From the NCBI RefSeq assembly GCF_000802235.1, contig NZ_JTDL01000037.1, positions 1 through 64,000 on the forward strand: a stretch of 64,000 bases of DNA. Reading direction: 5' to 3'. Both the position numbers and the translations under genes were made by a program. The notes under the pieces are model-generated. The model did no database searches. It saw only the letters and a program-made list of their open reading frames with translations, and had not been told where the DNA came from. Positions 37,190 through 52,389 of the stretch are shown here, piece by piece (positions within the stretch are counted from its first letter, which is position 1; the number at the start of each line of letters is the position of its first letter). The DNA comes from Sinomonas humi. Its GTDB lineage: Bacteria; Actinomycetota; Actinomycetes; Actinomycetales; Micrococcaceae.

Positions 37190-37201
37190 ATCCTATAGGA
37201 T
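37190..37201. promoter_or_regulatory. Operator ATCCTATAGGAT before the dehydratase gene
   Basis: A perfect 12-base palindrome 44 bases ahead of the ATG at 37246. The right half holds TAGGAT, a fair -10 box, so binding would block RNA polymerase. The same 12-mer occurs at 41698 and 47336, and with one change at 51678, next to the GntR gene that probably binds all four. Confidence 0.75.
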
Positions 37202-38586: not shown

Positions 38587-38654
38587 GCCAGCACGCCAGC
38601 GACCACTACCCGGCCAACCACGACGCCACGACCACAACGCCACGAGAGGACACG

Positions 38655-40166: not shown

Positions 40167-40200
40167 CCGGAACTGAGCGCGTGCTGCCCGAGGATGCGGG

Positions 40201-40998
40201 CTAGCCCGCCACGACGGCGCCGCGCAGGAACGGCACGAGCTCGTCCAGCACGGGTCCTGCCGGAAAGAGCGTCGAGGCGTGGGTGCGAGCGGGCAGCTCG
40301 ACGAAGCGGGCGTGCGGCATGATGGCCGCCGCGCGGCGTGACTGCTCGAGCCTCGGCACATCGAGGGTTCCCGCCATGAGCAGCGCCGGCATGGAGAGCT
40401 GGGCCAGGACAGCTTCGGGGACCCCCTCACCCTCCTCGGTCGCCTCGAAATAGGCCGCGAGCGCCTCGGCGTCGTTGGCAAGGAACGCCGCGCGGGTTGA
40501 GGGGTCGAGCTGATTCCCTGCGGCCCGGAAGCCATCGGCGAAGGCCGTCATCCCACCAGCGCGCAGTGCCTCGAGATAACCGGGGAAGAAGACCTTCTCG
40601 ACCTCGCCGCGCTGCGCCCGGTAGGTGCCGCCGAGCGTCGCGAGGCTCAGGACTCTCCGCGGCTCCGCTGCCGCGAGAGCGAACGCGACGCGGGCGCCGA
40701 ACGAGTACCCGACCGCGTGTGCGGCTTCAACCCGAGCATCGTCGAGGACGGTCAGCACGTCCTCGACGACGAGAGGCATGCGGTAGCGGTCGGGGGTGTG
40801 CGGTTTGCCGCTCCGCCCATGGCCGCGCAGGTCCATTCGGACGAGCGTGAATCCCTCGAGTGCGCGCACGTAGCCCAAGCCCCTCCAGATAGCGCGCGAA
40901 AGCGCGGAGCCATGGAGCAGGAGCACGCCCGGGCCCTCTCCCGAGACTTCGTACGCGAGTTGGGTTCCGTCCGAGGGGTTGGTGGCGATGCTCACCAC
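40201..40998 (-). CDS. Alpha/beta hydrolase
   Basis: A 265-residue alpha/beta-hydrolase fold protein. LLLHGSALSRAIW holds the oxyanion region, RMDLRGHGRSGKP follows, the nucleophile elbow is VGYSFGARVAF (Ser about residue 95), and the late histidine lies in PARTHASTLF. There is no signal peptide. It is on the opposite strand to the sugar-acid genes and may be unrelated, but a lactonase role cannot be excluded because sugar acids often enter as lactones. It is convergent with the aldehyde dehydrogenase gene. Confidence 0.8.
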   Translation of the reverse strand: MVSIATNPSDGTQLAYEVSGEGPGVLLLHGSALSRAIWRGLGYVRALEGFTLVRMDLRGHGRSGKPHTPDRYRMPLVVEDVLTVLDDARVEAAHAVGYSFGARVAFALAAAEPRRVLSLATLGGTYRAQRGEVEKVFFPGYLEALRAGGMTAFADGFRAAGNQLDPSTRAAFLANDAEALAAYFEATEEGEGVPEAVLAQLSMPALLMAGTLDVPRLEQSRRAAAIMPHARFVELPARTHASTLFPAGPVLDELVPFLRGAVVAG

Positions 40999-41072
40999 GC
41001 AACGCTAGCGCCCGGCGTCGCCCTCTGCAGTGGCCCCCGTTACCGTGTAGCGGGTATCACAGCGTTGGAGGC

Positions 41073-41543
41073 CTACCGCGCGGCGAGCGCTATGCCCAGC
41101 GACCGGCGGAGCCAGCTCGCGGCGAGCATCGCGGCGGTGAAGTCGGCGCACATGACGGCGAGCATCATCAGGCCGCTGCCCGTGGAGCCAGAGTCTCCAT
41201 CCGAGAGCACTGACAACGAGGGGCCCTGAGCCATCGCCGAGGCGCCCATACCCGCCATCCCTCCGTGGTGCAGCGCTGGGGCAACGCCGAGGAGCAGCGC
41301 ACCGTGGAGGAGGGCCATCCCGAGCGACATGCCGGTGAGGACGCGGGCAGTCCGCAGGGTCGGCGCACGCCACATGCCCCACGCGCACGGAATGCAGGCC
41401 AGCGCCATGAGGACGGCGGCTGCCGCCATCACTCCCCCGGCACTCACCATCGCCAGGTGCACGACGACGCCGACTCCCGCGGCCCCTGCGGCCCAGCGGG
41501 AGTGGGTGCTCGATGGACCCGCACGAAACGCAGTACTAGGCAT
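41073..41543 (-). CDS. Small membrane protein of unknown function
   Basis: A 156-residue protein with four likely membrane helices (about 18-36, 38-56, 66-88 and 118-140). A Met/His/Gly-rich loop, LHHGGMAGMGASAMAQ, lies between the last two, which could bind copper or another metal. No known family was recognised. It lies 74 bases before the hydrolase gene on the same strand, so the two may be transcribed together. Confidence 0.65.
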   Translation of the reverse strand: MPSTAFRAGPSSTHSRWAAGAAGVGVVVHLAMVSAGGVMAAAAVLMALACIPCAWGMWRAPTLRTARVLTGMSLGMALLHGALLLGVAPALHHGGMAGMGASAMAQGPSLSVLSDGDSGSTGSGLMMLAVMCADFTAAMLAASWLRRSLGIALAAR

Positions 41544-41697
41544 GCCTCAACCCTGCCGGCTCCTGCCCCTCCCCGCCGTTGCGAGAGCGCACGCCTCTTG
41601 ACGCGGAGCGAACATTGGGAGCAGAACGGTCTTGCGTCCTTGCGGGAGACCTCGTCGCCTCCCGCCGGCGCCTTCCCTCCTTCCAAAAGAGCCCTAT

Positions 41698-41709
41698 ATC
41701 CTATAGGAT
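41698..41709. promoter_or_regulatory. Operator ATCCTATAGGAT before the L-erythrulose kinase gene
   Basis: A perfect copy of the 12-base palindrome, 38 bases ahead of the ATG at 41748. Its position relative to the start matches the copies at 37190 and 47336, supporting one shared regulator. Confidence 0.78.
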
Positions 41710-41747
41710 CGGAGGAGAACAGGGACTCAAAGTGGAGGCAGCAGCTC

Positions 41748-43499
41748 ATGACACGGCTCTGGAACGAACCGGCCGATTTCGCAGATGACATGGTGGACGG
41801 CTTCGTCCGCGCAAACGGCCGCTGGGTCCGCAAAGTCTACGGCGGGGTGACCCGCTCCACGCAGGCCGCGCAGCCTGAGGTTGCGGTCGTGATCGGCGGG
41901 GGCAGCGGGCACTACCCCGCCTTCGCAGGCTTGGTCGGTCCCGGCCTCGCGCATGGGGCTGCCATGGGAAACCTCTTCGCCTCGCCCTCCGCGCATCAGG
42001 TCGAATCCGTTGCGCGTGCGAGCCACCGTGGTCGCGGCGTCCTGCTGAGCTATGGGAACTACGCCGGCGACGTCCTGCACTTCTCCGAGGCGCAGGAGGC
42101 GCTGCGCAAGGATGGCATCGACTGCCGAACCGTCACCGTCACGGATGACATCTTCTCCGCCCCTCCCCAGGAAGCCGAGAAGCGTCGGGGAATTGCCGGC
42201 GACCTGACAGTCTTCAAGGTTGCGGGAGCGGCGGCATCGCTCGGCTACGACCTCGACGGCGTCGAGCGCGTCGCGCGCCTCGCCAACGAAAGGACCCGCT
42301 CGCTCGGCGTCGCCTTCACCGGCTGCACGATGCCAGGCGCGGCAGAGCCGCTCTTCACCGTGCCGGAGGGGAGGATGGCGATCGGCCTCGGGATCCATGG
42401 CGAACCGGGGCTCGACGAGACGGACATCCCGACCGCCAACGGCCTCGCCGAGCTGTTCATCGAACAGCTCCTCGCCGACGCCGAAGTGCCCGGCGGGGCC
42501 TCGAAGTCCGGCGGCAGGGTCGTGCCCGTGCTCAACGGGCTCGGCTCGGTGAAGTCCGAGGAGCTCTTCGTCGTCTACGCCCGGGTGGCGGACCTGCTCG
42601 AATCCGCGGGCCTCACGATCGTCGACCCGCAGGTCGGCGAGTTCTGCACGAGCTTCGACATGGCGGGCGTTTCGCTCACGCTCCTATGGCTAGACGACGA
42701 GCTCGAGCGCCTGTGGCTGGCTCCCGCGGACACTCCCGCCTTCCGCTGTGGCGCAGTGGACCACGCGTCCCTCACCCCTACAGCGGACGACGCCGATGCG
42801 GACGAGCGCGCAAACGTGCCTTCCGCGTCCGCTGCCTCGAGCGAGGCAGCACGGCGCATTGCCGAGTTCCTCGGCGCAACCCGCGAGACCATCGACGAGC
42901 ACGCGGACGAGTTGGGCCGCATCGACGCGATCGCGGGTGACGGCGATCATGGGATCGGAATGCAGCGTGGCGCTCGCGCGGCGGCGGCCGAGGCCGAAGC
43001 CCTTGTAGAGCTCGGCGCAGGGGCAGGCACCCTGCTCTCTCGGGCGGCGGACGCATGGGCCGACCGCGCCGGGGGAACCTCCGGCGCCCTTTGGGGCGTG
43101 ATCCTCCGCACCCTCGGAGAGCGGCTCGGCGACACGGAGGCGGTCTCGCCAGAGGGCGTCCGTGACGGAGTGCTTTCGGCGTCCGAGACCGTGCGATCGT
43201 ATGGAAAGGCCCGCGTAGGCGACAAGACGCTCGTCGACGCCCTCGTTCCATTCGCCGACACGTTGGCTGCCCGCGTGGACGAAGGCGCTTCCCTGCCCGA
43301 AGCTTGGGAAGCTGCCGCGCAGGCAGCGACGACCGCGGCAGAGCGCACGGCCGATCTCATGCCCGGCCTCGGCCGCGCGCGGTCCCACGGCGAGAAGGCC
43401 CTGGGGGTGCCCGATCCCGGAGCCGTCTCGCTCGCCCTCATTGTGACGACTATCGCCGCGCTGCTCAGCAGAGGCGAGCGCACCGACGTCGCCCGCTGA
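41748..43499 (+). CDS. lerK: Dihydroxyacetone-kinase family enzyme, probable L-erythrulose kinase
   Basis: A 583-residue ATP-dependent kinase with both modules fused. The DhaK domain (1-330) has [15 protein letters not shown] and the substrate-binding histidine in GLGIHGEPG. The DhaL domain (370-580) has the nucleotide-metal motif [12 protein letters not shown] and [10 protein letters not shown]. The neighbours derI and lerI are the same set that in Mycobacterium smegmatis turns L-erythrulose into D-erythrose 4-phosphate, where this kinase makes L-erythrulose 1-phosphate. By itself the sequence would also fit a dihydroxyacetone kinase. It opens the transcription unit behind the operator at 41698. 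Confidence 0.85.
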
Positions 43500-43563
43500 A
43501 AACACCCGGACCCTAGCCCCACCACCAATTGCCTATCCCCATCACCAATTAGAGGAGCACATC

Positions 43564-44025
43564 ATGGCCCGACAGTGGCGCATCGTCGTCGGTTCCGACG
43601 ACGCAGGATTCGAATACAAGGAAGCAATCAAGAAGGACCTCGAGGCGAGCGGGCTGGTCGCGTCCGTTATGGATGTCGGCGTCGGCGCAGACGGGCATAC
43701 GAACTACCCGACCATCGCGACGAGCGCTGCCGAGATCGTCGCCCGCGGCGAGGCGGACCGCGCCGTCCTCATCTGCGGGACGGGCCTTGGCGTCGCGATC
43801 GCGGCGAACAAGGTGCCCGGAATCCGCGCGGTCACGGCGCACGATTCGTTCTCGGTCGAGCGTTCCGTGCTCTCGAACAACGCTCAGGTGCTCTGCATGG
43901 GGCAGCGCGTGGTCGGGCTCGAGCTCGCGCGGCGCAACGTCCGCGAGTGGCTCACCTATGAGTTCGACGAGACGAGCGCTTCGAACGAGAAGGTCCAGGA
44001 GCTCTGCGCCTACGAGGGCGTCTGA
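43564..44025 (+). CDS. derI: RpiB-type isomerase, probable D-erythrulose-4-phosphate isomerase
   Basis: A 153-residue enzyme of the RpiB/LacAB family. [20 protein letters not shown] starts it, the active cysteine sits in [15 protein letters not shown], and [30 protein letters not shown] completes the signature. In the M. smegmatis tetritol route the homologue DerI interconverts D-erythrulose 4-phosphate and D-erythrose 4-phosphate. With lerK before it and lerI after it (one base apart), the same role is likely. AGAGGAG lies before the ATG. Confidence 0.85.
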
Positions 44026-44026
44026 C

Positions 44027-44803
44027 GTGGCGCCTTGCCTCGTCGGCGTAAGCCTCAAGATGTACTTCAGCCACGCGAAGACCGTCGCGTGGTGCCGTGA
44101 CATCGCGGAGGTCGCCCGAGCGCACCCAGCGGTGCGCGACGGCGCGGCGCAGCTCTTCGTGGTCCCGACCTACCTCTCGGTGCCGGCTGCGGTGGACCTC
44201 CTCCGCGGTGTCGCCATGGTCGGCGCCCAGGACCTCGCAACGGAGGACGCGGGAGCGCTCACCGGAGAGGTCAGCGGGGCTGAGATCGCGGAGGTCGGAT
44301 GCCGCGTCGTCGAGGTCGGGCACGCTGAGCGCCGCCGCCTCTTCGGCGAGACGGACGCCGTCGTCCGCGCGAAGACGGACGCCGCGCTCCGGAACGGACT
44401 CACACCGATCCTGTGCGTAGGCGAGGCCGAGCGCGGCGCACCGGAATCCGTAGCTCAGGAGTGCATGCGGCAAGTCGACGACGCACTCTCCACGGCGCGC
44501 GCGGCGGGCCGGTGCGGCCGGGTCATCGTTGCCTACGAACCCCTTTGGGCCATCGGGGCGGACGCACCTGCCAAACCGGATTACATCCGCTCGGTGTGCG
44601 GCCGCCTGCGCCGCCATCTCGAGTCGTTCACCGACTTCGAGGGCTCGCGCGTGATCTACGGTGGGAGCGCCCGGCCCGGGCTCCTCCGCGAGATCGCAGA
44701 CGACGTCGATGGACTGTTCCTCGGCCGCTTCGCCCACCGCGCCGAGGCCCTTGAAGAGGTCCTCGACGAGGTGCTCAGCGCGCAGCCCGCCGGGACCCGC
44801 TAG
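44027..44803 (+). CDS. lerI: TPI-like enzyme, probable L-erythrulose-1-phosphate isomerase
   Basis: A 258-residue triosephosphate-isomerase-type barrel with Lys in GVSLKMYFSH, His in VEVGHAERRR and the catalytic Glu in VIVAYEPLWAIG, plus the phosphate loop VIYGGSARPG. It starts at a GTG one base after derI. A second TPI gene next to a DAK-type kinase and an RpiB homologue is the hallmark of the L-erythrulose pathway, where it converts L-erythrulose 1-phosphate to D-erythrulose 4-phosphate. A role as normal TPI is less likely in this context. Confidence 0.83.
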   Translation: MAPCLVGVSLKMYFSHAKTVAWCRDIAEVARAHPAVRDGAAQLFVVPTYLSVPAAVDLLRGVAMVGAQDLATEDAGALTGEVSGAEIAEVGCRVVEVGHAERRRLFGETDAVVRAKTDAALRNGLTPILCVGEAERGAPESVAQECMRQVDDALSTARAAGRCGRVIVAYEPLWAIGADAPAKPDYIRSVCGRLRRHLESFTDFEGSRVIYGGSARPGLLREIADDVDGLFLGRFAHRAEALEEVLDEVLSAQPAGTR

Positions 44804-44839
44804 CGGCAGCCGTCCCACCAATTTCCCGTCCACGATGAG

Positions 44840-46375
44840 GTGCCTGTGATCGTCGAAGAAGAACTGCTCGCGGGGTTCCCCGCCGACGCGACCGTGCCCG
44901 CAGAGGCGGTTGCGGATTCCGTCTCCGCCTCGAAGCGGATTCTTGTGGTCCTGGACGACGATCCGACTGGAACACAGTCGGTCGCCGACCTGCCCGTCCT
45001 CACCGCATGGGAGCCAGACGACTTCCGATGGGCCTTCGGACTCGCTGCATCCGGTTCCCGCTCCCCTCGACCCGAACGTGACAATCCCCAGGAGCAGCAC
45101 CAGCCTCCCGCTGCGGTCTACGTCCTCACGAACACCCGCAGCCTCGACCCGGGCGAGGCGGCCGAACGGAATCGGGAAGTTGTCACGAATGCGCTCGCGG
45201 CGGCCCGCGAGCTGGGGCTCGAACTGGCGTTCACGAGCCGCAGCGACTCGACACTGCGCGGCCATTTCCCCCTCGAGACAGACACGATCGCCGCAACCCT
45301 CGAAGCACAGGAGGCGCTCGGCGCTGATGGGGTGGTCATCGTCCCGGCCTTTCCCGACGCGGGCCGCGTCACCATCGGCGGCACACACTACACCCGCAAC
45401 GGCTCCGGCCAGCTCACGCCCGTCGCCGAGACCGAGTTCGCGCGCGACGCCACGTTCGGCTACCACAACTCGAGACTTGCGGAGTACGTCGAGGAGAAGT
45501 CGGGCGGGCGCTATCCGGCGGACCGCGTGATCGTGCTCGACCTCGCAACCCTTCGCACGGGCACCCCCACGGAAAGCGCGATCGCCATTGCGGATGCACT
45601 GGCACCCGCCACGGACCGGACGCCGATCGCCGTCGACATTGTGACCGAGAACGACTTCCGGCGCCTCGCCCTCGGCCTCGCCGAGGCCGAGCGGCGTGGG
45701 AAGAGGTTCATCTACCGGGTCGGCCCTCCGTTCGTGCGCGGCCGGATCGGTCAGGAGGTCAAGGCGCCGCTCAGCTCTGCCGAGGCGCTCGGGCCCGACG
45801 CCCCACCGCGCGGCGGCCTCGTCGTCGTCGGCTCGCACGTGGGGCAGACCACCCGGCAGCTCGAGGCGCTGCTGGGCCGCCTCCCGTCCGCGCGCGTGGT
45901 TGAACTCGACGTCGAACGCGTCCTCGCGGGCGACGAATCGCACGTCGCCGAGACCGCGGAGCTCGTTGCCGCCTCGCTTGCGACGGGGGACGTCGTGGTC
46001 CACACGACCCGCACCCTCGTCACCGCGGACACCGCCGCAGGAAGCCTCGCAATCGCCCGCCGGATCTCGGCGGCCCTCGTCGACGTGGTGCGCCGGACCC
46101 TCGCGGCCGTCCGCCCGCGCTTCGTCGTGGCCAAGGGCGGCATCACATCGTCCGACGTCGCCGCCCACGGCCTCGGGATCCGGCACGCGATCGTCAGGGG
46201 CCCCATGCTCCCCGGAATCGTCTCGCTCTGGGAGCCGATGGACGGCCCTGCCCTCGGCATCCCCTACGTCGTCTTCGCGGGAAACGTCGGCGACGACGCA
46301 TCCTTGGCCGACGTAGTAGCCAAGCTGAGCTACCAGAAGGACCAAGGTGAGCTACCAGAAGGAACCGATCAATGA
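44840..46375 (+). CDS. Four-carbon acid sugar kinase (DUF1537 family)
   Basis: A 511-residue kinase of the DUF1537 family, which phosphorylates tetronate-type acids (OtnK, DtnK) or 3-oxo-isoapionate. The N-terminal domain holds LDDDPTGTQSVADLPVLT and SRSDSTLRGHFPLE, and the C-terminal nucleotide-binding domain has VAKGGITSSDVAAHGL and VFAGNVGD. A charged insertion at about 70-90 (RPERDNPQEQHQ) is unusual. The GTG start follows 36 bases after lerI, and the stop overlaps the dehydrogenase start by four bases. The last residues come from a 22-bp duplicated segment read in another frame. No class II OtnC aldolase is seen, so the substrate is uncertain. Confidence 0.87.
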   Translation: MPVIVEEELLAGFPADATVPAEAVADSVSASKRILVVLDDDPTGTQSVADLPVLTAWEPDDFRWAFGLAASGSRSPRPERDNPQEQHQPPAAVYVLTNTRSLDPGEAAERNREVVTNALAAARELGLELAFTSRSDSTLRGHFPLETDTIAATLEAQEALGADGVVIVPAFPDAGRVTIGGTHYTRNGSGQLTPVAETEFARDATFGYHNSRLAEYVEEKSGGRYPADRVIVLDLATLRTGTPTESAIAIADALAPATDRTPIAVDIVTENDFRRLALGLAEAERRGKRFIYRVGPPFVRGRIGQEVKAPLSSAEALGPDAPPRGGLVVVGSHVGQTTRQLEALLGRLPSARVVELDVERVLAGDESHVAETAELVAASLATGDVVVHTTRTLVTADTAAGSLAIARRISAALVDVVRRTLAAVRPRFVVAKGGITSSDVAAHGLGIRHAIVRGPMLPGIVSLWEPMDGPALGIPYVVFAGNVGDDASLADVVAKLSYQKDQGELPEGTDQ

Positions 46376-47295
46376 CTGACCCTGCCGCCGACCGCTACAC
46401 GGTTGCTGTCCTCGGCCTCGGCGCGATGGGCTTGCCCATGGCATCGCGGCTCGCCACGCGCCTCACCGTCCACGGCTTCGACATCGCTGAGGAACGCCTC
46501 GCACTCGCCCGCGAGGCGGGCGTCGAGACGTTCGGATCGGCGCGCGAGGCGGCGCGCGGGGCCGACGCGGTTCTGCTCGCGGTACGCAACGAAGCCCAGC
46601 TCGAGGACGTCCTCTTCGGGGATGCGGGTATCGCACCCGAGCTCTCGCGAGGCGCTGTCGCGATCCTGACCAGCACCGTTGGGACCGGAGCCGTGGACGG
46701 AACCGCCCAACGCCTGGCGGAACTCGGTGTCGACCTCGTGGACGCTCCTCTCTCAGGCGGCCCGGTTCGCGCGGGACAAGGTGACCTGCTCGTCGTCGTC
46801 GGCGCGTCACCGTCGGCGCTCGAACGCGCCCGCCCCGTGCTCGACCTGCTGGCTTCGACGCTCTCGGTCGTGGGCGACCGGGCCGGGGACGGCCAAGCCC
46901 TCAAGACGGTCAACCAGCTCCTCTGCGGGGTGCACATCGCCGCAGCAGCCGAGGCGCTCGCGCTCGCGGACGCCCTCGGGCTTGACCGAGCGCGCACCCT
47001 CGACGCCCTCACGGCAGGTGCGGCGGGCTCCTTCATGCTCGGGGATCGCGGCCGGCGCATGCTCAGCGCATACGACGACGGCGGGGCGCCCGTGCTGAGC
47101 CGGCTCGACATCTTCGTGAAGGACCTTGGGATCGTGGGACGCGCAGCGCGCACCGCCGGACTTCCCACACCTGTCGCGGCAGCCGCCGAGCAGCTTTTTC
47201 TTATGGGGCAGTCGATGGGGCTCGAGGCAGAAGACGATTCAGCCGTCATCCGCGTCCTCGCGCCCGAGCTTCGCAAGGCCCCCGACGAGGCCTGA
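46372..47295 (+). CDS. Beta-hydroxyacid dehydrogenase (LtnD/GarR-like)
   Basis: A 307-residue NAD(P)-dependent enzyme of the 3-hydroxyisobutyrate dehydrogenase family. Rossmann motif VLGLGAMGLPMASRLA, substrate motif VDAPLSGGPVRAGQGDL and the catalytic lysine in LKTVNQLLCGVHIAA are seen. Next to a DUF1537 kinase such proteins are usually L-threonate or D-threonate dehydrogenases that oxidise the 2- or 3-hydroxyl. It is coupled to the kinase gene by an ATGA overlap. The cofactor is likely NAD, but this was not judged. Confidence 0.85.
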   Translation: MTDPAADRYTVAVLGLGAMGLPMASRLATRLTVHGFDIAEERLALAREAGVETFGSAREAARGADAVLLAVRNEAQLEDVLFGDAGIAPELSRGAVAILTSTVGTGAVDGTAQRLAELGVDLVDAPLSGGPVRAGQGDLLVVVGASPSALERARPVLDLLASTLSVVGDRAGDGQALKTVNQLLCGVHIAAAAEALALADALGLDRARTLDALTAGAAGSFMLGDRGRRMLSAYDDGGAPVLSRLDIFVKDLGIVGRAARTAGLPTPVAAAAEQLFLMGQSMGLEAEDDSAVIRVLAPELRKAPDEA

Positions 47296-47335
47296 AGCAC
47301 CAGCTTGACTTGAGCGGTGACTTGGTTCACTGTAA

Positions 47336-47347
47336 ATCCTATAGGAT
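47336..47347. promoter_or_regulatory. Operator ATCCTATAGGAT before the TIM-barrel gene
   Basis: A perfect palindrome 40 bases ahead of the ATG at 47388, with TTGACT at 47305-47310 upstream. It starts a second transcription unit (TIM-barrel enzyme to MFS transporter). It also shows that the open frame running from 47310 is not translated from there. Confidence 0.78.
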
Positions 47348-47387
47348 CTACGATCAGGACGGTCGATCAACCATGCAACGGAGCACC

Positions 47388-48323
47388 ATGCAGGAGAATC
47401 CTCACTACACCGCAGAGACCTGGCCCATCGCCACGTGCCTCCACGGCTTCGCCCCAACCGACGCGCAGGGCGTGAACATGCACGACGCCGAGCCTGAGGT
47501 CTGGGACGACATGTTCGCCCAGATCGAGGAGGTCGGGTTCAACCTCGCCGAGCTCGCGGACAGCCACGTCCGGCCGGCCGACCTTTCCCCGTCGCGCCGC
47601 GACGAGTTCCTCGCCATCGCCGCGTCGCACGGCGTCGGCATCCCCTCGGTGCACCTCCAACGGCAGAGCGTCATCATGCCCGGCCACGAAGAGCGGAACC
47701 TCGAGTACGCGCACCGCACGATCGACGCTGCCGCGGAATGGGGCATGCAGGTCTTCTCGACCGGGCTGCACCAGCCCTTCAGCGAGGCCCAGAAGAAGGC
47801 CCTGTGGTTCTGGACGGCCGAGGGGCCGAAGGACCCCGAAGACCGGGAGACGTGGGATCTCGCCGTCAGCCGCATCCGCGAACTGGGCAAGCACGCGGCG
47901 GAGGTCGGCCTTCCGGTCGCTCTCGAGCTGTACGAGGACACGTATCTGGGGACAGCAGACAGCGCGGTGCGATTCGTCGAGGCCGTCGGGCTCGACAATG
48001 TCGGGCTCAACCCTGACGTCGCAAACCTCATCCGCCTCCACCGCCCCGTCGAGGACTGGCGAGAGCTCTACGCGAAGACGCTCCCCTACGCCAACTACTG
48101 GCACGTCAAGAACTACACGCGGGACGAAGCCGCGGACGGCAGCTGGGCGACGTCGGTGCCCTCGACCATGGAAACCGGCCTCATCAACTACCGCCAGGTG
48201 TTCCGCGACGCCATCAAGCTCGGCTTCAACGGGATCATCCTCACGGAGCAGTACGGCGGCGACAGCCTCGGCGTGTGCGCCACGAATCAGAAGTACATCC
48301 GCTCGCTCCTGCCCAAGGCCTAG
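47388..48323 (+). CDS. Sugar isomerase/epimerase-type TIM barrel, possible 3-oxo-acid decarboxylase
   Basis: A 311-residue protein of the AP-endonuclease-2/xylose-isomerase-like barrel family. Metal-ligand candidates are Glu in FNLAELADSHV, Glu in VALELYEDTYLG, Asp in LNPDVANLI, His in YWHVKNYT and Glu in ILTEQYGGD. The family includes hydroxypyruvate/2-oxo-tetronate isomerases (OtnI) and the 3-oxo-isoapionate decarboxylase OiaC, which gives L-erythrulose. With L-erythrulose enzymes encoded next to it, the decarboxylase reading is attractive but unproven. The ATG at 47388 has GGAG six bases before it; 47373 is an alternative. Confidence 0.75.
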   Translation: MQENPHYTAETWPIATCLHGFAPTDAQGVNMHDAEPEVWDDMFAQIEEVGFNLAELADSHVRPADLSPSRRDEFLAIAASHGVGIPSVHLQRQSVIMPGHEERNLEYAHRTIDAAAEWGMQVFSTGLHQPFSEAQKKALWFWTAEGPKDPEDRETWDLAVSRIRELGKHAAEVGLPVALELYEDTYLGTADSAVRFVEAVGLDNVGLNPDVANLIRLHRPVEDWRELYAKTLPYANYWHVKNYTRDEAADGSWATSVPSTMETGLINYRQVFRDAIKLGFNGIILTEQYGGDSLGVCATNQKYIRSLLPKA

Positions 48324-48338
48324 GAAGGAATCCCAGCC

Positions 48339-49304
48339 ATGACCAATTCGGCATCGCAGAACAAGATCGCCGTCGTCGGCTCCGGCTACATGGGAGGTGG
48401 GATCGCGCAGTCGCTCGCCCTCGCCGGTGCGACGGTGAAGATCGCCGACATCTCCGAGGAGATCGCCAAGAAGAACTACGACCGGCTCCTCGCCGAGGCC
48501 GCCGACTTCGCGGAGCAGGGGCTCTTCCCCGCCGACGCGGTCGAGCGCATCAAGGCGAACCTCTCCCCCGCAGCATCCATCGAGGACGCGGTGGCCGACG
48601 CGGACTTCATCGAGGAGGCCGTGCCCGAGAAGATCGAGATCAAGCACGAGACGCTGCGCCGCGTCAGCGCAGCCGCTCGGCCTGAGGCGGTCATCGGTTC
48701 GAACACCTCGACCATCCGCATTGCGGAACTGGCCACCGCCGTCGAGCGCCCCGAGCGGTTCCTCGGAGTGCACTTCTCGAACCCCGCGCCGTTCATCCCG
48801 GGCGTCGAACTCATCCCCCATGAGGGGACCGACGAGGGCGTCCTGCCGTTCGTCGAGGAGATCGTCGCTTCGACGGGCAAGGAGAGTGCGCGCGTCAAGG
48901 ACTCCACGGGGTTCGTGCTCAACCGCCTCCAGTACGCCCTGTTCCACGAGGCGACGCAGATCGTCGAAGAGGGCATTGCCACGCCCGAGGACATCGACAC
49001 CATCGTCCGTACGACGTTCGGCTTCCGCCTCCCGGCATTCGGACCGTTCGCGATCGCGGACATGGCCGGGCTCGACGTCTACGCGTTCTGCTACGCGTCC
49101 CTCCAGACCCGTTGGCCTGAGCGCTTCGCCACTCCCGAATCGCTGCGAGAGCTCGTCGATGCTGGGAAGTTCGGCACCAAGTCCGGCGCGGGGTACCTCA
49201 ACGTGCCCGCCGACCGCACGCCGGAGCTCGTCGCGTACCGGAACAAGGCCTATGTGGCCATCAAGAAGCTCATGGACGAGCTCGGCCCCGCACCGATCAA
49301 CTAG
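48339..49304 (+). CDS. 3-hydroxyacyl-CoA dehydrogenase-family oxidoreductase
   Basis: A 321-residue enzyme with the N-terminal NAD domain VVGSGYMGGGIAQSLALAG, the segment VIGSNTSTIRI, the catalytic histidine in GVHFSNPAPFIPGVELIPHEGT and the C-terminal helical domain FVLNRLQYALFHEA. The family covers true 3-hydroxyacyl-CoA dehydrogenases but also L-gulonate 3-dehydrogenase and L-carnitine dehydrogenase, which act on free acids. Among sugar-acid genes it most likely oxidises the 3-hydroxyl of a sugar acid to a 3-keto acid. It lies 15 bases after the TIM-barrel gene, and GAAGGA precedes the ATG. Confidence 0.82.
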   Translation: MTNSASQNKIAVVGSGYMGGGIAQSLALAGATVKIADISEEIAKKNYDRLLAEAADFAEQGLFPADAVERIKANLSPAASIEDAVADADFIEEAVPEKIEIKHETLRRVSAAARPEAVIGSNTSTIRIAELATAVERPERFLGVHFSNPAPFIPGVELIPHEGTDEGVLPFVEEIVASTGKESARVKDSTGFVLNRLQYALFHEATQIVEEGIATPEDIDTIVRTTFGFRLPAFGPFAIADMAGLDVYAFCYASLQTRWPERFATPESLRELVDAGKFGTKSGAGYLNVPADRTPELVAYRNKAYVAIKKLMDELGPAPIN

Positions 49305-49316
49305 GAGAACCCCCCC

Positions 49317-50084
49317 ATGACCGCCTTCCCCGAATCCCGGACCGTCATCCTCACCGGTGCCGCCTCTCCCCGTGGCATCGGCCGTGCGTCCGCCCACTAC
49401 CTGGCCGAGCGAGGCTGGAACGTGGGGATCATCGACCTCGACGCTGCTGCCGCGAAGCGCGTCGCCGAAGAGATCGTCCTCGAGCACGGCGTCCAGGCAG
49501 CTGGAGCCGGGGCCGACGTCTCGAATGAGGCTCAGGTCCGCGTTGCCTTCGATGAACTCGAAGGTGCCCTGCCCCAGATCGTCGCGCTCGTGAACCTCGC
49601 CGGCGTCTCCTCGCCCGTCCCCTACCTCGAGGTCACCCCCGAAGAGTGGAACCGGGTCATGAACATCAACCTCAACGGCGTCCACTACGCAACGCGCAGG
49701 GCCGTCGAATCGATGGTCAAGAACGGTGTGGGGCGCGTCGTCAGCCTTGCCTCGGTTTCGGCACAGCGCGGCGGCGGCACGTACAGCAAGACCCCGTACT
49801 CCGCCGCGAAGGCCGGCATCATCGGCTTCTCGCGCAGCGTCGCCCGCGAACTCGGCCACGACGGGATCACCGTCAACGTGATCTCTCCCGGACCCATCGA
49901 CACCGACATCATGGGCGGGACCCTCACCGACGAGCGCAAGGTCCTGATGGCGGCCGACGGCGTCCTGCCGAGAATCGGCACGCCGCGCGACATCGCTGCC
50001 GCAATCGCCTACCTCATCAGCGAGGACGCCGGCTTCGTGACGGGCCAGACCCTGAACGTCGACGGCGGCCTCTACATGCACTGA
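49317..50084 (+). CDS. Short-chain dehydrogenase/reductase
   Basis: A 255-residue SDR. The cofactor loop reads TGAASPRGIGRA, two residues longer than the common TGxxxGIG. The following DLD at the end of strand 2 suggests NAD. NLAGVSS, the catalytic YSAAKAG (Tyr and Lys) and NVISPGPIDTDIM are normal. It lies 12 bases after the previous gene and belongs to the same unit. It could be a sugar-acid or polyol dehydrogenase, for instance an L-threitol/erythritol or keto-deoxy-acid dehydrogenase. The substrate cannot be told from the sequence. Confidence 0.87.
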   Translation: MTAFPESRTVILTGAASPRGIGRASAHYLAERGWNVGIIDLDAAAAKRVAEEIVLEHGVQAAGAGADVSNEAQVRVAFDELEGALPQIVALVNLAGVSSPVPYLEVTPEEWNRVMNINLNGVHYATRRAVESMVKNGVGRVVSLASVSAQRGGGTYSKTPYSAAKAGIIGFSRSVARELGHDGITVNVISPGPIDTDIMGGTLTDERKVLMAADGVLPRIGTPRDIAAAIAYLISEDAGFVTGQTLNVDGGLYMH

Positions 50085-50102
50085 TTACAGAGCGGACCCC
50101 AC

Positions 50103-50204
50103 ATGAAATCCCTTCTGGGCAGTTGGTCGAAATCGCGCCTGCTGTTCCTCGCCGTGGGCCTTGCCCTCGTTGCCTTTGGCGCGGCGTCGCTGCTTCAGCA
50201 CTGA
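50103..50204 (+). CDS. Possible 33-residue single-span membrane peptide
   Basis: An ATG at 50103 opens a 33-codon frame ending in TGA at 50202. It reads MKSLLGSWSKSRLLFLAVGL at the start and goes on with a hydrophobic run, giving one transmembrane helix (about 13-30) after two lysines and an arginine. It sits between the SDR and MFS genes, in the same direction. No good ribosome site is visible (GAGCGG only). It may be a small helper of the transporter, or chance. Confidence 0.4.
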   Translation: MKSLLGSWSKSRLLFLAVGLALVAFGAASLLQH

Positions 50205-50271
50205 CGCCGCTCCGGCGGCACCAATTCGCGCACCCGTCTTACGAGAAGTTCATCTCAAAGGAGAGCTTGAA

Positions 50272-51642
50272 GTGTCCACATCAGCCGAGAGGACCCTCGC
50301 GTCGTCCATCCACGACGCGAAATTGAAATCCGCCATCAGCAAGGCGGCTCGGCACCTCATGCCGATGCTTGTGATCCTGTATTTCGTAGCGTTCCTGGAC
50401 CGCACGAATGTCGGCTTTGCCCAAGCCGCGCTCAAGGCCGACCGCGGCGTCAGCGACGCCGCCTTCGCCCTCGGTGCCGGCATCTTCTTCATCGGCTACG
50501 CCATCTTCGAAGTCCCGAGCAACCTCCTGCTCAAGCGCTTCGGCGCGCGCTTCTGGCTCGCCCGCATCTCCATCACGTGGGGAATCGTGGCGGCCTGCTT
50601 CGCCTTCACGACGAACGACGTCATGTTCAACGTGCTGCGCTTCCTCCTCGGTGTCACCGAGGCGGGGCTGTTCCCGGGCGTCATCATGTTCCTTTCCGAG
50701 TGGTTCCCGAACAAGGTCCGCGTCCAGATGTTCGCGATCTTCTATCTCGCGCAGCCTTTCTCGCAGATGATCGGCGCCCCGATGAGCGGCGGCCTGATCA
50801 GCTTCGGCGACTCCCTCGGCTTCGCCCGCGGCTGGCAGGTCATGTTCTTCGGCGAGGGCATCCTCGCGATCCTCGCCGGTATCGCCGCGCTGTTCCTCCT
50901 CACGAACAGTCCCGCCAAGGCCAAGTTCCTCGACGATGACGAGAAGCTCGCCCTCTCCAATGCCATGGCGGTAGAGGACCAGGCACGGAACCAGGACGGC
51001 CCGAAGGGCATCTGGTCGGCCATGGCGAACTGGAAGGTCTGGTACTTCACGGTCATCTACTTCGCCCTGCAGATCGCGGTGTACGGCACTACGTTCTACC
51101 TGCCCCAAGAGGTTGCCGGGCTCCTCGGCAAGAAGGTCGGCTGGGAAGTCGGCCTTGTCTCCGCCATCCCGTGGCTCGTGGGCCTTTTCGCCTGCTACTT
51201 CCTCGGCCGCGCTGCGCACACGGTAGCCCGTCGCCGCAACTGGGGCACGCTCCTCTACATCGGCACCGGCCTGTTCATCGTGGGCTCCGCGTGGGCGGGT
51301 GTGAGCAGCCAGCCGCTGCTCGGCATCGTGTTCATCACGCTTGCAGTCGCGAGCTTCCTCGCCGTCGGACCGATCACGTGGGCCTATCCGACGTCCTTCC
51401 TCACGGGGGCAGCCGCCGCGGCCGGCATCGGGCTCATCAACTCGCTCGGAAATCTCGGCGGCTTCGTCGCCCCGCTCATGCGGACGGCGTTCAACTCGGC
51501 GATGCCGACGACGAGCGGAGCTTGGGGCGTCATCTCCCTCGGGGTCTTCGCATTCCTCGGAGCGCTCATGATGTACCTGACGAGGTTCTTCCGGACGGCA
51601 AAGTCTGACGAACTGCTCGACGAACCGGTGATGCACCACTAG
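50272..51642 (+). CDS. MFS transporter of the sugar-acid (anion:cation symporter) family
   Basis: A 456-residue transporter with about twelve membrane helices. The conserved early stretch LVILYFVAFLDRTNVGFAQAAL and the GYAIFEVPSNLLLKRFGARFWLARI region are the signature of the ACS family (GudP, ExuT, DgoT, tartrate and phthalate carriers), which import organic acids with protons. It ends the second transcription unit of the cluster and so probably brings in the sugar acid. The GTG at 50272 has AAGGAGAG at good distance, which decides the start over the longer frame. Confidence 0.9.
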   Translation: MSTSAERTLASSIHDAKLKSAISKAARHLMPMLVILYFVAFLDRTNVGFAQAALKADRGVSDAAFALGAGIFFIGYAIFEVPSNLLLKRFGARFWLARISITWGIVAACFAFTTNDVMFNVLRFLLGVTEAGLFPGVIMFLSEWFPNKVRVQMFAIFYLAQPFSQMIGAPMSGGLISFGDSLGFARGWQVMFFGEGILAILAGIAALFLLTNSPAKAKFLDDDEKLALSNAMAVEDQARNQDGPKGIWSAMANWKVWYFTVIYFALQIAVYGTTFYLPQEVAGLLGKKVGWEVGLVSAIPWLVGLFACYFLGRAAHTVARRRNWGTLLYIGTGLFIVGSAWAGVSSQPLLGIVFITLAVASFLAVGPITWAYPTSFLTGAAAAAGIGLINSLGNLGGFVAPLMRTAFNSAMPTTSGAWGVISLGVFAFLGALMMYLTRFFRTAKSDELLDEPVMHH

Positions 51643-51677
51643 CGAGGAGTTCACGAGCCTGACGTGACCGAGACAAT

Positions 51678-51689
51678 ATCCGATAGGAT
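51678..51689. promoter_or_regulatory. Operator variant ATCCGATAGGAT before the GntR gene
   Basis: One base away from the perfect ATCCTATAGGAT, this copy ends seven bases before the ATG at 51697 and so overlaps the ribosome site. Binding would block the regulator's own gene, typical self-control, and the weaker match would keep some expression. Confidence 0.72.
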
Positions 51690-51696
51690 TCGACCC

Positions 51697-52389
51697 ATGC
51701 ACGCCGTTTCGAGTGGTCGTCGGCCAGCCAACCGACAGCTCCTGGCCGACTACGTGTACCAGGAACTGCTCGCGTCCCTCATGGACGGCCGGCTCGAGCC
51801 CGGGCAGGCCATCGGAATCGATCGGATGGCCCAAGAGCTCGACGTGTCTCAGACACCGATTCGCGAGGCGCTCGCCCGGCTCGAGTCCACTGGGCTCGTC
51901 CGGCGCGCGGCGCTCAAGGGCTACCGGGTGGCTCCACTCTTCACGGCGGAGGAGCTCGATGAGCTCATGGCCGCGCGAGCGATCATCGAACCAGCCATCG
52001 CAGAGCGCGCCTGCGCTCATGTGACAGCGGAGCTTCGGGAAGAGCTCGAGCAGGCCGTCGACGACCTCCGTGGGGCTCCGACCGGCCCGACCTTCGCAGA
52101 GTACGGGGCGTATTGGGAGGCGGACGAGCGGTTCCACCGTCTCATCGCCGAGAACGCACAGAATCGGTTCCTGGTCAACGCGTACAGGGCCCTCGGCGGC
52201 CAGGTGCAGCGCTTCAGGTTCTTCGGGAAGCTCGGCGTGACTGACGCCGAGAACGCGATCGAGGAGCATACGAAGATCCTCGAGGCGTTCGAATCGGGCG
52301 ACCCACAGCGAGCGCACGATGCGATGCTCGAGCACATCTCGGGCGTGCGGGACCGCGCTGTGAAGGACGCCGCCTCGAAGCGCAGCTGA
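51697..52389 (+). CDS. GntR-family (FCD) regulator of the sugar-acid regulon
   Basis: A 230-residue regulator. The winged helix (about 12-75) reads LLADYVYQELLASLMDGRLEPGQAI, the helix-turn-helix AQELDVSQTPIREALARLESTGLV and the wing GYRVAPLF. The FCD domain (85-220) has MAARAIIEPAIAERAC and metal-type histidines (FHRLIAENAQNRFLVNAY and IEEHTKILEAF). FCD regulators respond to small organic acids. Its gene closes the cluster, and the palindrome ATCCTATAGGAT before three units and its own gene is the predicted site. The ATG at 51697 is used since the operator lies in the longer frame. Confidence 0.87.
   Translation: MHAVSSGRRPANRQLLADYVYQELLASLMDGRLEPGQAIGIDRMAQELDVSQTPIREALARLESTGLVRRAALKGYRVAPLFTAEELDELMAARAIIEPAIAERACAHVTAELREELEQAVDDLRGAPTGPTFAEYGAYWEADERFHRLIAENAQNRFLVNAYRALGGQVQRFRFFGKLGVTDAENAIEEHTKILEAFESGDPQRAHDAMLEHISGVRDRAVKDAASKRS

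What the first reader, a model, noticed from the sequence alone, without database searches (positions are those of the whole stretch)
41748..51642. A possible unreported sugar-acid route that runs through L-erythrulose to erythrose 4-phosphate
Seen: homologues of LerK (fused DhaK-DhaL), DerI (RpiB type) and LerI (TPI type) sit with a DUF1537 kinase, a beta-hydroxyacid dehydrogenase, a TIM-barrel enzyme, a 3-hydroxyacyl-CoA-dehydrogenase-family enzyme, an SDR and an organic-acid MFS carrier. Known: LerK/LerI/DerI convert L-erythrulose to D-erythrose 4-phosphate in M. smegmatis tetritol use; OiaC, a TIM-barrel enzyme, decarboxylates 3-oxo-isoapionate to L-erythrulose; the 3HCDH family includes L-gulonate 3-dehydrogenase. 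Inferred: a five-carbon acid is taken up, oxidised at C3 by the 3HCDH-type enzyme, decarboxylated by the TIM-barrel enzyme to L-erythrulose, then phosphorylated and isomerised. No polyol dehydrogenase, OtnC aldolase or RuBisCO-like protein is seen, so it is neither the plain tetritol nor the plain tetronate pathway. The DUF1537 kinase may serve a second branch.
Basis: partly seen in the sequence, partly recalled or inferred. Interest (0 to 1): 0.75.

Follow-up and report, generated by a model that had tools for sequence, protein, structure and literature searches.

The report
Sugar-acid breakdown route via erythrulose
A soil-type bacterium carries a jointly controlled set of genes that most likely breaks down a five-carbon sugar acid by oxidising it, clipping off carbon dioxide to leave the four-carbon sugar erythrulose, and feeding that into central metabolism; similar gene sets with swapped first enzymes occur in other soil, skin and root-nodule bacteria, and no description was found in the open papers searched.

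Summary
Observation confirmed and enlarged. A palindrome, ATCC(T/G)ATAGGAT, occurs four times in the whole 4.4-Mb genome, each just upstream of one of four transcription units; one of these, an L-fuconate-dehydratase-type enzyme plus aldehyde dehydrogenase, lies outside the given coordinates.

Comparison of 99 neighbourhoods (97 distinct) of the TIM-barrel gene shows a core: TIM barrel + LerK/DerI/LerI-type enzymes + a beta-hydroxyacid dehydrogenase, usually 3HCDH-type (74), sometimes PdxA-type (11), never both, with MFS, GntP or TTT organic-acid carriers. Rhizobia, including Sinorhizobium meliloti, carry PdxA-TctCBA-TIM-LerK as one run.

Best reading (0.6): an aldonic acid, probably linear C5, is oxidised at C3, decarboxylated by the TIM barrel to erythrulose, then phosphorylated and isomerised to erythrose 4-phosphate. 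It works like the decarboxylating D-apionate pathway (recalled) but with another dehydrogenase and a distant TIM barrel of the 5tnv family. Substrate and decarboxylation are inferred, not shown; the pentonate hint rests on few genomes. DUF1537-HIBADH is an optional side branch. New variant of a known kind.

The parts
37190..37201 (.). operator-like palindrome ATCCTATAGGAT before the dehydratase-ALDH unit
   Evidence: only four such sites in the genome
37246..38586 (+). enolase-superfamily sugar-acid dehydratase, L-fuconate dehydratase type
   Evidence: Pfam MR_MLE; best solved relatives L-fuconate dehydratase 2hxt/1yey, 599 bits
38583..40166 (+). aldehyde dehydrogenase; possible start 38655
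   Evidence: Pfam Aldedh; a 70% homologue stands behind the same palindrome with an FAH-family gene in another genus, G018
41698..41709 (.). operator-like palindrome ATCCTATAGGAT before LerK
   Evidence: also before LerK in relatives such as L158, L159, L160, L164, L166
41748..43499 (+). LerK-type DhaK-DhaL fusion kinase (proposed: erythrulose kinase)
   Evidence: GIHGEPG and GDGDHG motifs kept in 36 of 36 rows; 57.6% to the kinase of an Arthrobacter polyol-type cluster, 61.3% to that of an Erwinia apionate-type cluster
43564..44025 (+). RpiB-type isomerase (proposed DerI)
   Evidence: 73.5% to RpiB of the Arthrobacter polyol-type cluster
44027..44803 (+). TPI-type isomerase (proposed LerI); Lys/His/Glu motifs kept, S-L-K at the place of N-W-K of textbook TPI (recalled)
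44840..46375 (+). DUF1537-family kinase; start 44846 equally possible; optional side branch
   Evidence: present in 14 of 99 neighbourhoods
46372..47295 (+). beta-hydroxyacid dehydrogenase (HIBADH type), nearest model L-threonate dehydrogenase but below its cut-off
   Evidence: 258.8 bits, cut-off 350; fused to the kinase in locus L095
47336..47347 (.). operator-like palindrome ATCCTATAGGAT before the TIM-barrel gene
47388..48323 (+). xylose-isomerase-like TIM barrel of the 5tnv family (proposed 3-oxo-aldonate decarboxylase giving erythrulose)
48339..49304 (+). 3HCDH-family dehydrogenase (proposed aldonate 3-dehydrogenase)
   Evidence: His, Glu and Asn of the catalytic motifs kept in 33 of 33 rows
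49317..50084 (+). SDR oxidoreductase, possible alternative or second dehydrogenase
   Evidence: the palindrome stands before an 86% homologue in another genus, G130
50103..50204 (+). conserved 33-aa single-helix membrane protein frame between SDR and MFS genes
   Evidence: 16 of 17 SDR-MFS gaps examined, window included
50272..51642 (+). MFS carrier, probably for an organic anion; nearest solved relatives, weakly, sialin and the D-galactonate transporter
   Evidence: 43 and 28 bits
51678..51689 (.). operator-like site ATCCGATAGGAT before the regulator gene
51697..52389 (+). GntR/FadR-type (GntR + FCD) regulator, proposed to bind the palindrome
   Evidence: homologues lie in 74 of 99 TIM neighbourhoods

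Best explanation
One GntR/FadR-controlled regulon for growth on sugar acids. Core route: an aldonic acid (most likely a linear pentonate, L series) enters by the MFS carrier; the 3HCDH-type enzyme oxidises its C3 hydroxyl with NAD; the metal-dependent TIM-barrel enzyme decarboxylates the 3-oxo acid through an enediolate to erythrulose plus CO2; the LerK-type kinase makes erythrulose 1-phosphate; the TPI-type enzyme makes D-erythrulose 4-phosphate; the RpiB-type enzyme makes D-erythrose 4-phosphate for the pentose phosphate pathway. In other bacteria PdxA (and perhaps the SDR) does the oxidation and GntP or TTT carriers do the uptake. A parallel unit with the same operator (dehydratase + aldehyde dehydrogenase, with an FAH-type gene in some relatives) resembles the Weimberg route for pentonates. 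DUF1537 kinase + HIBADH is an optional side branch, probably for a C4 acid. Shown: gene content, shared operator-like sites, conserved linkage, dehydrogenase exchange. Inferred: every reaction, the substrate, the pairing of operator and regulator.
For: Shared palindrome, four sites in the genome, all here. In 29 genomes chosen because they have the TIM gene, the core TCCTATAGGA has 56 sites, 46 of them within 11 kb of the TIM gene and at least one there in all 29; the reversed control string has 19 sites in all. Of the 10 sites elsewhere, 7 precede homologues of the window's genes: LerK, ALDH, a FucD-ALDH operon, the SDR and three MFS genes. LerK lies in 87, TPI type in 81, RpiB type in 80, 3HCDH in 74, PdxA in 11, 3HCDH together with PdxA in 0 of 99 neighbourhoods (two of the 99 are duplicates). 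PdxA comes with TctA in 10 of 11. Carriers are mostly organic-acid types: GntP in 41, MFS in 38, TctA in 12 of 99. Rhizobial order PdxA-TctC-TctB-TctA-TIM-LerK; Paracoccus TIM-LerK-PdxA-TctCBA. The likely apionate clusters of Erwinia and Pantoea have the same plan, MFS-LerK-TPI-TIM barrel-PGDH_C protein; their TIM barrel and ours align by profile with matching motifs E-x-Y-E, D-x-x-N, H-x-K, E. [quoted passage not shown] EltD and LerK turn L-threitol and erythritol into L-erythrulose 1-phosphate and D-erythrulose 4-phosphate, and LerI and DerI carry these on to erythrose 4-phosphate (PMC10733421, passages read).
Against: I know of no assigned activity in this TIM family, and by profile it is about as near to the ketose-phosphate 3-epimerase UlaE (97.1%) as to the OiaC candidates (96.4%), so epimerase or isomerase chemistry is open. 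PdxA relatives can decarboxylate themselves (recalled), which would make a decarboxylase redundant there. The RpiB-type protein meets the cut-off of the actinobacterial ribose-5-phosphate isomerase model, not that of DerI. In 8 of 35 TPI rows the motif is T-S-W-K-M-N, and the one such protein scanned, from L058, passes a triose-phosphate isomerase cut-off. The pentonate hint is thin: FucD lies in none of the 99 neighbourhoods; of five FucD loci found in 15 genomes only the window's has the palindrome in the flank fetched, G080 being the second case; and the own genome lacks the FAH homologue. In 13 of 97 distinct neighbourhoods neither 3HCDH nor PdxA is near; 11 of these have the SDR. LerK can also serve D-erythrulose, so the L configuration is not fixed by the genes.
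Confidence: 0.6

Rival explanations
1. The acid is a C4 tetronate (threonate or erythronate): it is oxidised at C3, decarboxylated to dihydroxyacetone, phosphorylated by the DhaK-DhaL kinase to DHAP and isomerised by the TPI-type enzyme.
For: The kinase family is annotated as dihydroxyacetone kinase; DUF1537 and a threonate-dehydrogenase-like HIBADH are in the regulon; in Paracoccus the PdxA-TIM-LerK set lies beside a 3-oxo-tetronate kinase and an aldolase; in 8 of 35 rows the TPI-type protein has the T-S-W-K-M-N motif, and the one scanned passes a true TPI cut-off; the carrier of the E. coli threonate operon, YgbN, is of the GntP family as I recall.
Against: It leaves the RpiB-type gene, present in 80 of 99 neighbourhoods, without a job. 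In 27 of 35 rows the TPI-type proteins have S-T/L-K-M/A-Y there, and those of a polyol-type and an apionate-type cluster have S-L-K-M-Y. Kinase and RpiB are close to those of an Arthrobacter polyol-type cluster, 58% and 74%. The regulon's other unit looks like pentonate breakdown.
Confidence: 0.13
2. A branched C5 acid: the cluster is a D-apionate or isoapionate route in which a plain 3HCDH dehydrogenase makes 3-oxo-isoapionate, and the TIM protein is a functional OiaC.
For: Same plan as the apionate-type clusters of Erwinia and Pantoea, including a related MFS carrier (38.8%) and kinase (61.3%); profile similarity of the TIM barrels; 5tnv comes from Mycobacterium smegmatis and, as I recall, from the group that described the apionate routes.
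Against: The PGDH_C family, which I recall as that of ApnO and which sits in the Erwinia and Pantoea clusters, has no match in the own genome and matches in only 2 of 17 genomes searched, far from the TIM gene. A dehydratase that takes off the alpha proton, such as the FucD-type enzyme, cannot act on isoapionate, which lacks a C2 hydrogen (inference), yet shares the operator.
Confidence: 0.15
3. The TIM protein is an epimerase or isomerase of a tetrulose or pentulose, the SDR or another dehydrogenase makes erythrulose from a polyol, and the other dehydrogenases serve other steps.
For: Folds next after 5tnv include ketose 3-epimerases and UlaE, Z about 24 to 26; the pattern E180, D210, H/Q239, E287 is that of the epimerases' metal site as I recall; the SDR matches the GolD/DthD model below its cut-off, 149.6 against 286 bits.
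Against: The own genome has a separate polyol-type set: alcohol dehydrogenase, DUF2291 protein, ABC carrier, LerK, RpiB, TPI and DeoR genes homologous one by one to the Arthrobacter cluster, on another contig. Neighbourhoods of the TIM gene carry acid carriers and beta-hydroxyacid dehydrogenases instead, and the three annotated rhizobial runs have no polyol dehydrogenase in them.
Confidence: 0.12

Closest known systems
D-apionate decarboxylating pathway (ApnO, OiaC, LerK, LerI, DerI; recalled from Carter et al. 2018, not held in the library)
   Same: Acid carrier, NAD enzyme giving a 3-oxo acid, TIM-barrel decarboxylase to L-erythrulose, then LerK, LerI, DerI; the Erwinia and Pantoea clusters, which I take to be of this kind, show the same gene plan
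   Different: Here the oxidising enzyme is 3HCDH or PdxA, not the PGDH_C protein; the TIM barrel is of another family (no BLAST match, profile match only); the regulator is GntR/FadR type instead of a sugar-binding one; a linear instead of a branched acid is proposed
Tetritol utilisation of M. smegmatis (LerK, LerI, DerI; Huang et al. 2015, seen only as a reference and through passages of PMC10733421 and PMC12780249)
   Same: Kinase and two isomerases that carry erythrulose to erythrose 4-phosphate
   Different: No polyol ABC carrier or zinc-type alcohol dehydrogenase in this regulon; such a set lies elsewhere in the same genome
L-threonate pathways (LtnD, OtnI, OtnK, OtnC; three-step form in Arthrobacter; PMC12540250, passages read)
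   Same: HIBADH-type dehydrogenase and DUF1537 kinase
   Different: No OtnC or OtnI found in the regulon; two relatives with the DUF1537-HIBADH pair, G037 and G045, have only one F_bP_aldolase gene, so no spare 2-OtnC of that type
Weimberg-type pentonate route (dehydratase, KDP dehydratase, alpha-ketoglutarate semialdehyde dehydrogenase; PMC6336799, passages read)
   Same: FucD-type dehydratase and aldehyde dehydrogenase behind the same operator; an FAH-type gene beside them in G006 and G080, and beside ALDH in G018
   Different: A parallel unit only; it does not produce erythrulose, and the FAH gene was not found in the own genome
L-gulonate 3-dehydrogenase plus 3-dehydro-L-gulonate decarboxylase (animals; recalled)
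   Same: 3HCDH-family enzyme oxidises C3 of an aldonate and a decarboxylase then yields a ketose; lambda-crystallin proteins are among the solved relatives
   Different: C6 acid to C5 ketose there; C5 to C4 proposed here

Membership tests
5tnv family of xylose-isomerase-like TIM barrels | full-length sequence and fold similarity to 5tnv | tested here: met
   283 bits over residues 6-309; Z 41.5, rmsd 2.0, 304 aligned, next Z 26.2
OiaC (3-oxo-isoapionate decarboxylase) | sequence membership with the TIM barrel of apionate-type clusters | tested here: inconclusive
   no BLAST hit at E 10 to the Erwinia candidate but hhalign 92.1% (one sequence) and 96.4% (five sequences) with matching motifs; the candidate's name is recalled, not proven
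OtnI / Hyi (2-oxo-tetronate and hydroxypyruvate isomerases) | profile similarity to E. coli YgbM or Hyi | tested here: not met
   hhalign probability 10.6 and 3.4
D-apionate decarboxylating pathway | LerK, LerI and DerI type enzymes | tested here: met
D-apionate decarboxylating pathway | PGDH_C-type oxidoisomerase (ApnO, assignment recalled) | tested here: not met
   no match in the own genome; 2 of 17 genomes match, neither near the TIM gene
D-apionate decarboxylating pathway | conversion of D-apionate | not testable with these tools
   needs enzymes or growth tests
Tetritol pathway | polyol carrier and polyol dehydrogenase in the unit | tested here: inconclusive
   carrier nearest, weakly, to organic-anion carriers; the SDR's substrate is unknown; a separate polyol-type set exists elsewhere in the genome
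L-threonate pathway | LtnD and OtnK homologues | tested here: inconclusive
   HIBADH 258.8 bits against cut-off 350; DUF1537 61.9 bits against the D-threonate kinase cut-off 450
L-threonate pathway | OtnC (Aldolase_II or F_bP_aldolase) in the unit | tested here: not met
   none among the genes scanned at 37246-52389; the two F_bP_aldolase genes of the own genome lie on other contigs; Aldolase_II was not sought genome-wide
Weimberg pentonate route | sugar-acid dehydratase and aldehyde dehydrogenase in one unit | tested here: met
Weimberg pentonate route | KDP dehydratase (FAH type) | tested here: not met
   no match at 1e-20 in the own genome; matches in G006, G018, G080, 3 of 9 genomes searched; other types of KDP dehydratase were not sought
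3HCDH family dehydrogenase | Rossmann motif and catalytic residues | tested here: met
   Pfam 3HCDH_N and 3HCDH; His, Glu, Asn motifs kept in 33 of 33 rows, SNTST in 30 and TNTST in 3

The most novel reading that the evidence does not exclude
An undescribed route for linear five-carbon aldonic acids: C3 oxidation, decarboxylation by a new family of TIM-barrel decarboxylases (5tnv family) to erythrulose, and entry as erythrose 4-phosphate; the C3 oxidation step has been filled repeatedly by unrelated dehydrogenases (3HCDH, PdxA, perhaps SDR), probably matching different stereoisomers, and one regulator holds this route and a Weimberg-type unit together.
Probability: 0.4. Interest if true: 0.75.

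Novelty: new variant of a known kind. Interest (0 to 1): 0.62.

Why it matters
It would give a function to a structurally solved enzyme family without an assigned activity known to me (5tnv), re-assign genes now labelled 3-hydroxybutyryl-CoA dehydrogenase, PdxA and dihydroxyacetone kinase in many genomes (117 loci and 93 plasmid records hold the TIM gene here; a larger collection gave 530 candidate relatives of which the best 80 were looked at), and add a path from sugar acids to erythrose 4-phosphate in actinobacteria, mycobacteria and rhizobia. The Sinorhizobium meliloti genes make it directly testable in a laboratory model.

Tried and rejected
OtnI or hydroxypyruvate isomerase as identity of the TIM protein: rejected on profile comparison; neither appears among the 50 rows of the fold list, which is no proof. 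Known apionate pathway as such: its PGDH_C gene (recalled) is missing. Plain tetritol pathway: a separate polyol-type set is in the genome. L-threonate three-step pathway for DUF1537 + HIBADH: no aldolase in the unit, and two relatives with the pair have only one F_bP_aldolase gene; role left open. Literature: searches of the open PMC library listed no paper on this gene set or on a pentonate-to-erythrulose route as far as titles, abstract starts and the passages I opened show; the papers of Huang 2015, Zhang 2016 and Carter 2018 are not held, so what I say of them is recalled. Guessed S. meliloti locus tags gave no paper. A scan of 396 genomes of the phylum found the TIM family in 5, the own genome and one weak partial match included; in most genomes only 5 candidates were scored, so this may undercount. 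tRNA search: none in the window. Of the ten palindromes outside the TIM neighbourhoods, L171 and L172 showed no homologue of the window's genes and L170 precedes an MFS gene not matched by the window's MFS.

Sampling notes: 37 of 42 non-window matches were fetched as stretches of up to 20 kb; the 80 named loci are the best-scoring 80 of 530, so near relatives of the first row are over-represented; of the 117 loci, 18 with less than 7 kb on a side were left out of the counts, and the window itself is not counted. L062/L124 and L074/L111 are the same records; without the repeats the figures are LerK 86, 3HCDH 73, PdxA 11 of 97. Counts rest on tblastn at 75 bits or more; the gene lists come from a home-made caller. 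Neighbourhoods are not phylogenetically independent. The 29 genomes were picked from those with the TIM gene.

Full report
1. What is there. The genes lie on one strand in operon-like runs plus a regulator. The intergenic DNA holds a palindrome, ATCCTATAGGAT, at 37190, 41698 and 47336 and a one-base variant at 51678. The whole 4.4-Mb genome holds no other ATCCNATAGGAT; shuffles of the window give 0.01 on average. The sites end 44, 38, 40 and 7 bases before the start codons of the dehydratase, LerK, TIM-barrel and GntR genes. So the finding is most simply one regulon, and it extends left to a dehydratase-aldehyde dehydrogenase pair at 37246-40166.

2. The operator in relatives. The ten-base core TCCTATAGGA was sought in 29 genomes of the same family, all chosen because they have the TIM gene: 56 sites, 46 of them within 11 kb of the TIM gene and at least one there in each of the 29 genomes; the reversed string, as control, gave 19. 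Ten sites lie elsewhere; seven of these stand before homologues of the window's genes: LerK with RpiB, TPI and GntR in G006; ALDH plus an FAH-family gene in G018; an operon Ldh_2 - DctPQM - FucD - ALDH in G080 (an FAH gene follows); the SDR in G130; MFS carriers in G000, G056 and G018. [quoted passage not shown] FucD, FAH and ALDH together are the kinds of enzyme of a Weimberg-type pentonate route; L-fuconate dehydratase of X. campestris is said to use D-arabinonate (PMC6336799, passages read). This is the main hint that the acids are pentonates, and it is thin: no FucD in the 99 neighbourhoods; five FucD loci in 15 genomes, of which only the window's has the palindrome in the flank fetched; no FAH homologue in the own genome.

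3. The conserved core. In 99 neighbourhoods with at least 7 kb on both sides of the TIM gene (97 distinct), LerK is present in 87, TPI type in 81, RpiB type in 80, 3HCDH in 74, PdxA in 11, and 3HCDH together with PdxA in none; 85 have one or the other and 11 of the other 14 have the SDR. Gene order differs among lineages: GntR-TIM-LerK-RpiB-3HCDH-SDR-MFS-TPI; TIM-3HCDH-SDR-MFS with LerK-RpiB-TPI apart; RpiB-LerK-TPI-TIM-3HCDH-GntP; TPI-RpiB-LerK-GntR-TIM-3HCDH-GntP in Mycolicibacterium. The exchange is seen inside genera: Isoptericola L133 and L134 with 3HCDH and L142 with PdxA and Tct; Brachybacterium L098 with 3HCDH against L119 and, on a short contig, L123 with PdxA. PdxA comes with TctA in 10 of 11. 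The carriers are mostly those of organic acids: GntP, TTT, MFS weakly near sialin and the D-galactonate transporter. Both 3HCDH and PdxA oxidise a hydroxyl beta to a carboxyl carbon (established for the families, recalled); their mutual replacement beside the same TIM barrel and kinase is the strongest evidence for a C3-oxidation step followed by a common TIM-barrel step.

4. Rhizobia. Plasmid records show the TIM protein at about 46 to 51% identity in Sinorhizobium, Ensifer, Shinella, Pararhizobium, Rhizobium and Paracoccus. The annotated order is PdxA - TctC - TctB - TctA - TIM - LerK with a divergent GntR (S. meliloti RCAM1115, Pararhizobium, Shinella); S. meliloti 1021 pSymB has PdxA, TctC, TctA, TIM and LerK homologues at the same spacing. 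In Paracoccus sp. TOH the order is TIM-LerK-PdxA-TctCBA followed by a SAF-domain protein, a 3-oxo-tetronate kinase and an aldolase. This is the smallest unit seen: uptake, oxidation, TIM step, phosphorylation.

5. The TIM protein. Its only clear solved relative by sequence is 5tnv from M. smegmatis. The model (pLDDT 91.3) matches 5tnv with Z 41.5; next come SCO6571, Art22, a 2-hydroxy-3-keto-glucal hydratase, IolE, UlaE and ketose 3-epimerases at Z 24 to 26. Glu180, Asp210 and Glu287 are invariant in 38 rows and position 239 is His in 34 and Gln in 4; Arg92, Arg216, His218, Arg219, Lys241, Arg245 and Arg269 are invariant, a basic site that would suit a carboxylate (inference). Profile comparison: UlaE 97.1%, five OiaC-like proteins 96.4%, a single OiaC candidate 92.1%, OtnI 10.6%, Hyi 3.4%. 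The OiaC candidates were found through LerK: in Erwinia sp. E602 and Pantoea sp. At-9b the order is MFS - LerK - TPI family - TIM barrel - PGDH_C protein - regulator, which I recognise from memory as the decarboxylating apionate pathway. Aligned motifs are E-x-Y-E, D-x-x-N, H-x-K and a C-terminal E. So the protein works plausibly like OiaC without being shown to be one; UlaE is no farther, so an epimerase is not excluded.

6. Erythrulose end. The kinase keeps the GIHGEPG and GDGDHG motifs in 36 of 36 rows, and the 3HCDH protein keeps its His, Glu and Asn motifs in 33 of 33. The TPI-type protein keeps the Lys, His and Glu motifs; in 27 of 35 rows it has S-T/L-K-M/A-Y where textbook TPI has N-W-K-M-N (recalled), as do the TPI-family proteins of the Erwinia and Arthrobacter clusters; in 8 rows (L057-L061, L073-L075) it has T-S-W-K-M-N, and the L058 protein passes a triose-phosphate isomerase cut-off. 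EltD and LerK together carry L-threitol to L-erythrulose 1-phosphate and erythritol to D-erythrulose 4-phosphate, and LerI and DerI take these on to erythrose 4-phosphate in E. coli (PMC10733421, passages). Because the TPI-type step erases the stereocentre (inference), the genes do not fix whether L- or D-erythrulose is the intermediate; the frequent presence of the TPI-type gene favours the 1-phosphate, hence L-erythrulose. The own genome has two further LerK sets: one on contig C134 whose alcohol dehydrogenase, DUF2291, ABC carrier, LerK, RpiB, TPI and DeoR genes match those of the polyol-type cluster of Arthrobacter sp. FW306-07-I one by one at 41 to 75%, and one on C7 with an SDR. The set in the window is therefore a paralogue of its own, wired to acids as I read it.

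7. DUF1537 and HIBADH. Present in 14 and 16 of 99 neighbourhoods; all 14 with DUF1537 also have 3HCDH and SDR; fused into one 793-aa frame in L095. Closest models are D-threonate kinase and L-threonate dehydrogenase, both below cut-off. An Arthrobacter three-step L-threonate route uses LtnD, 2-OtnK and an F_bP_aldolase (PMC12540250, passages), but G037 and G045 have the pair and only one F_bP_aldolase gene. I leave it as an optional branch, perhaps for a C4 acid, unproven.

8. Ecology, inference only: L-threonate and C5 acids such as 2-oxo-L-threo-pentonate arise from ascorbate (PMC6225978, passages), which would suit soil and rhizosphere bacteria; nothing here tests it.

9. Verdict. Observation confirmed; interpretation partly supported and strengthened in its main line. 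New variant of a known kind, probability 0.6 for the route as stated, 0.40 for the boldest form (linear pentonates, new decarboxylase family, repeated recruitment of unrelated dehydrogenases).

Noticed in passing
window 50103-50204 and SDR-MFS gaps of other loci: A conserved single-helix membrane protein frame of about 30-43 aa (motif W-S/T-x-x-R...LA-I/V/L-G) lies between the SDR and MFS genes in 16 of 17 gaps examined, window included; perhaps an accessory of the carrier.
   Followed up: partly
TIM protein, window 47388-48323, residues 55, 57, 60, 97: The window protein and two others (L039, L045) have E, A, H, M where most of the 38 rows have D, T, W, D; this may mark a different substrate isomer in this clade.
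   Followed up: partly
L095:7502-9883: DUF1537 kinase and HIBADH fused into one 793-aa reading frame, which argues that the two act in one path.
   Followed up: no
G000 contigs C134 (L244) and C7 (L245): Two further LerK-RpiB modules in the same genome, one inside a polyol-type ABC cluster, one with an SDR 45% identical to the window SDR and an RpiB match over 93 residues only.
   Followed up: partly
window 40201-40998, minus strand: An alpha/beta hydrolase gene faces the regulon; a 66% homologue stands divergent to LerK, with the palindrome between them, in L043. Possibly a lactonase.
   Followed up: no
L121 (Carnimonas nigrificans): A gammaproteobacterium with a TIM protein 71% identical to 5tnv, 3HCDH, LerK, RpiB, TPI and the same palindrome, which points to transfer between phyla.
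   Followed up: no
L173:6000-11999: In another genus the palindrome stands before Ldh_2 - TRAP carrier - FucD - ALDH, a sugar-acid operon whose substrate is open.
   Followed up: partly
L098, L100, L105 (Brachybacterium): The TIM gene is followed by the SDR while 3HCDH sits further on behind its own palindrome, which suggests that the SDR is a second entry to the same TIM step.
   Followed up: no
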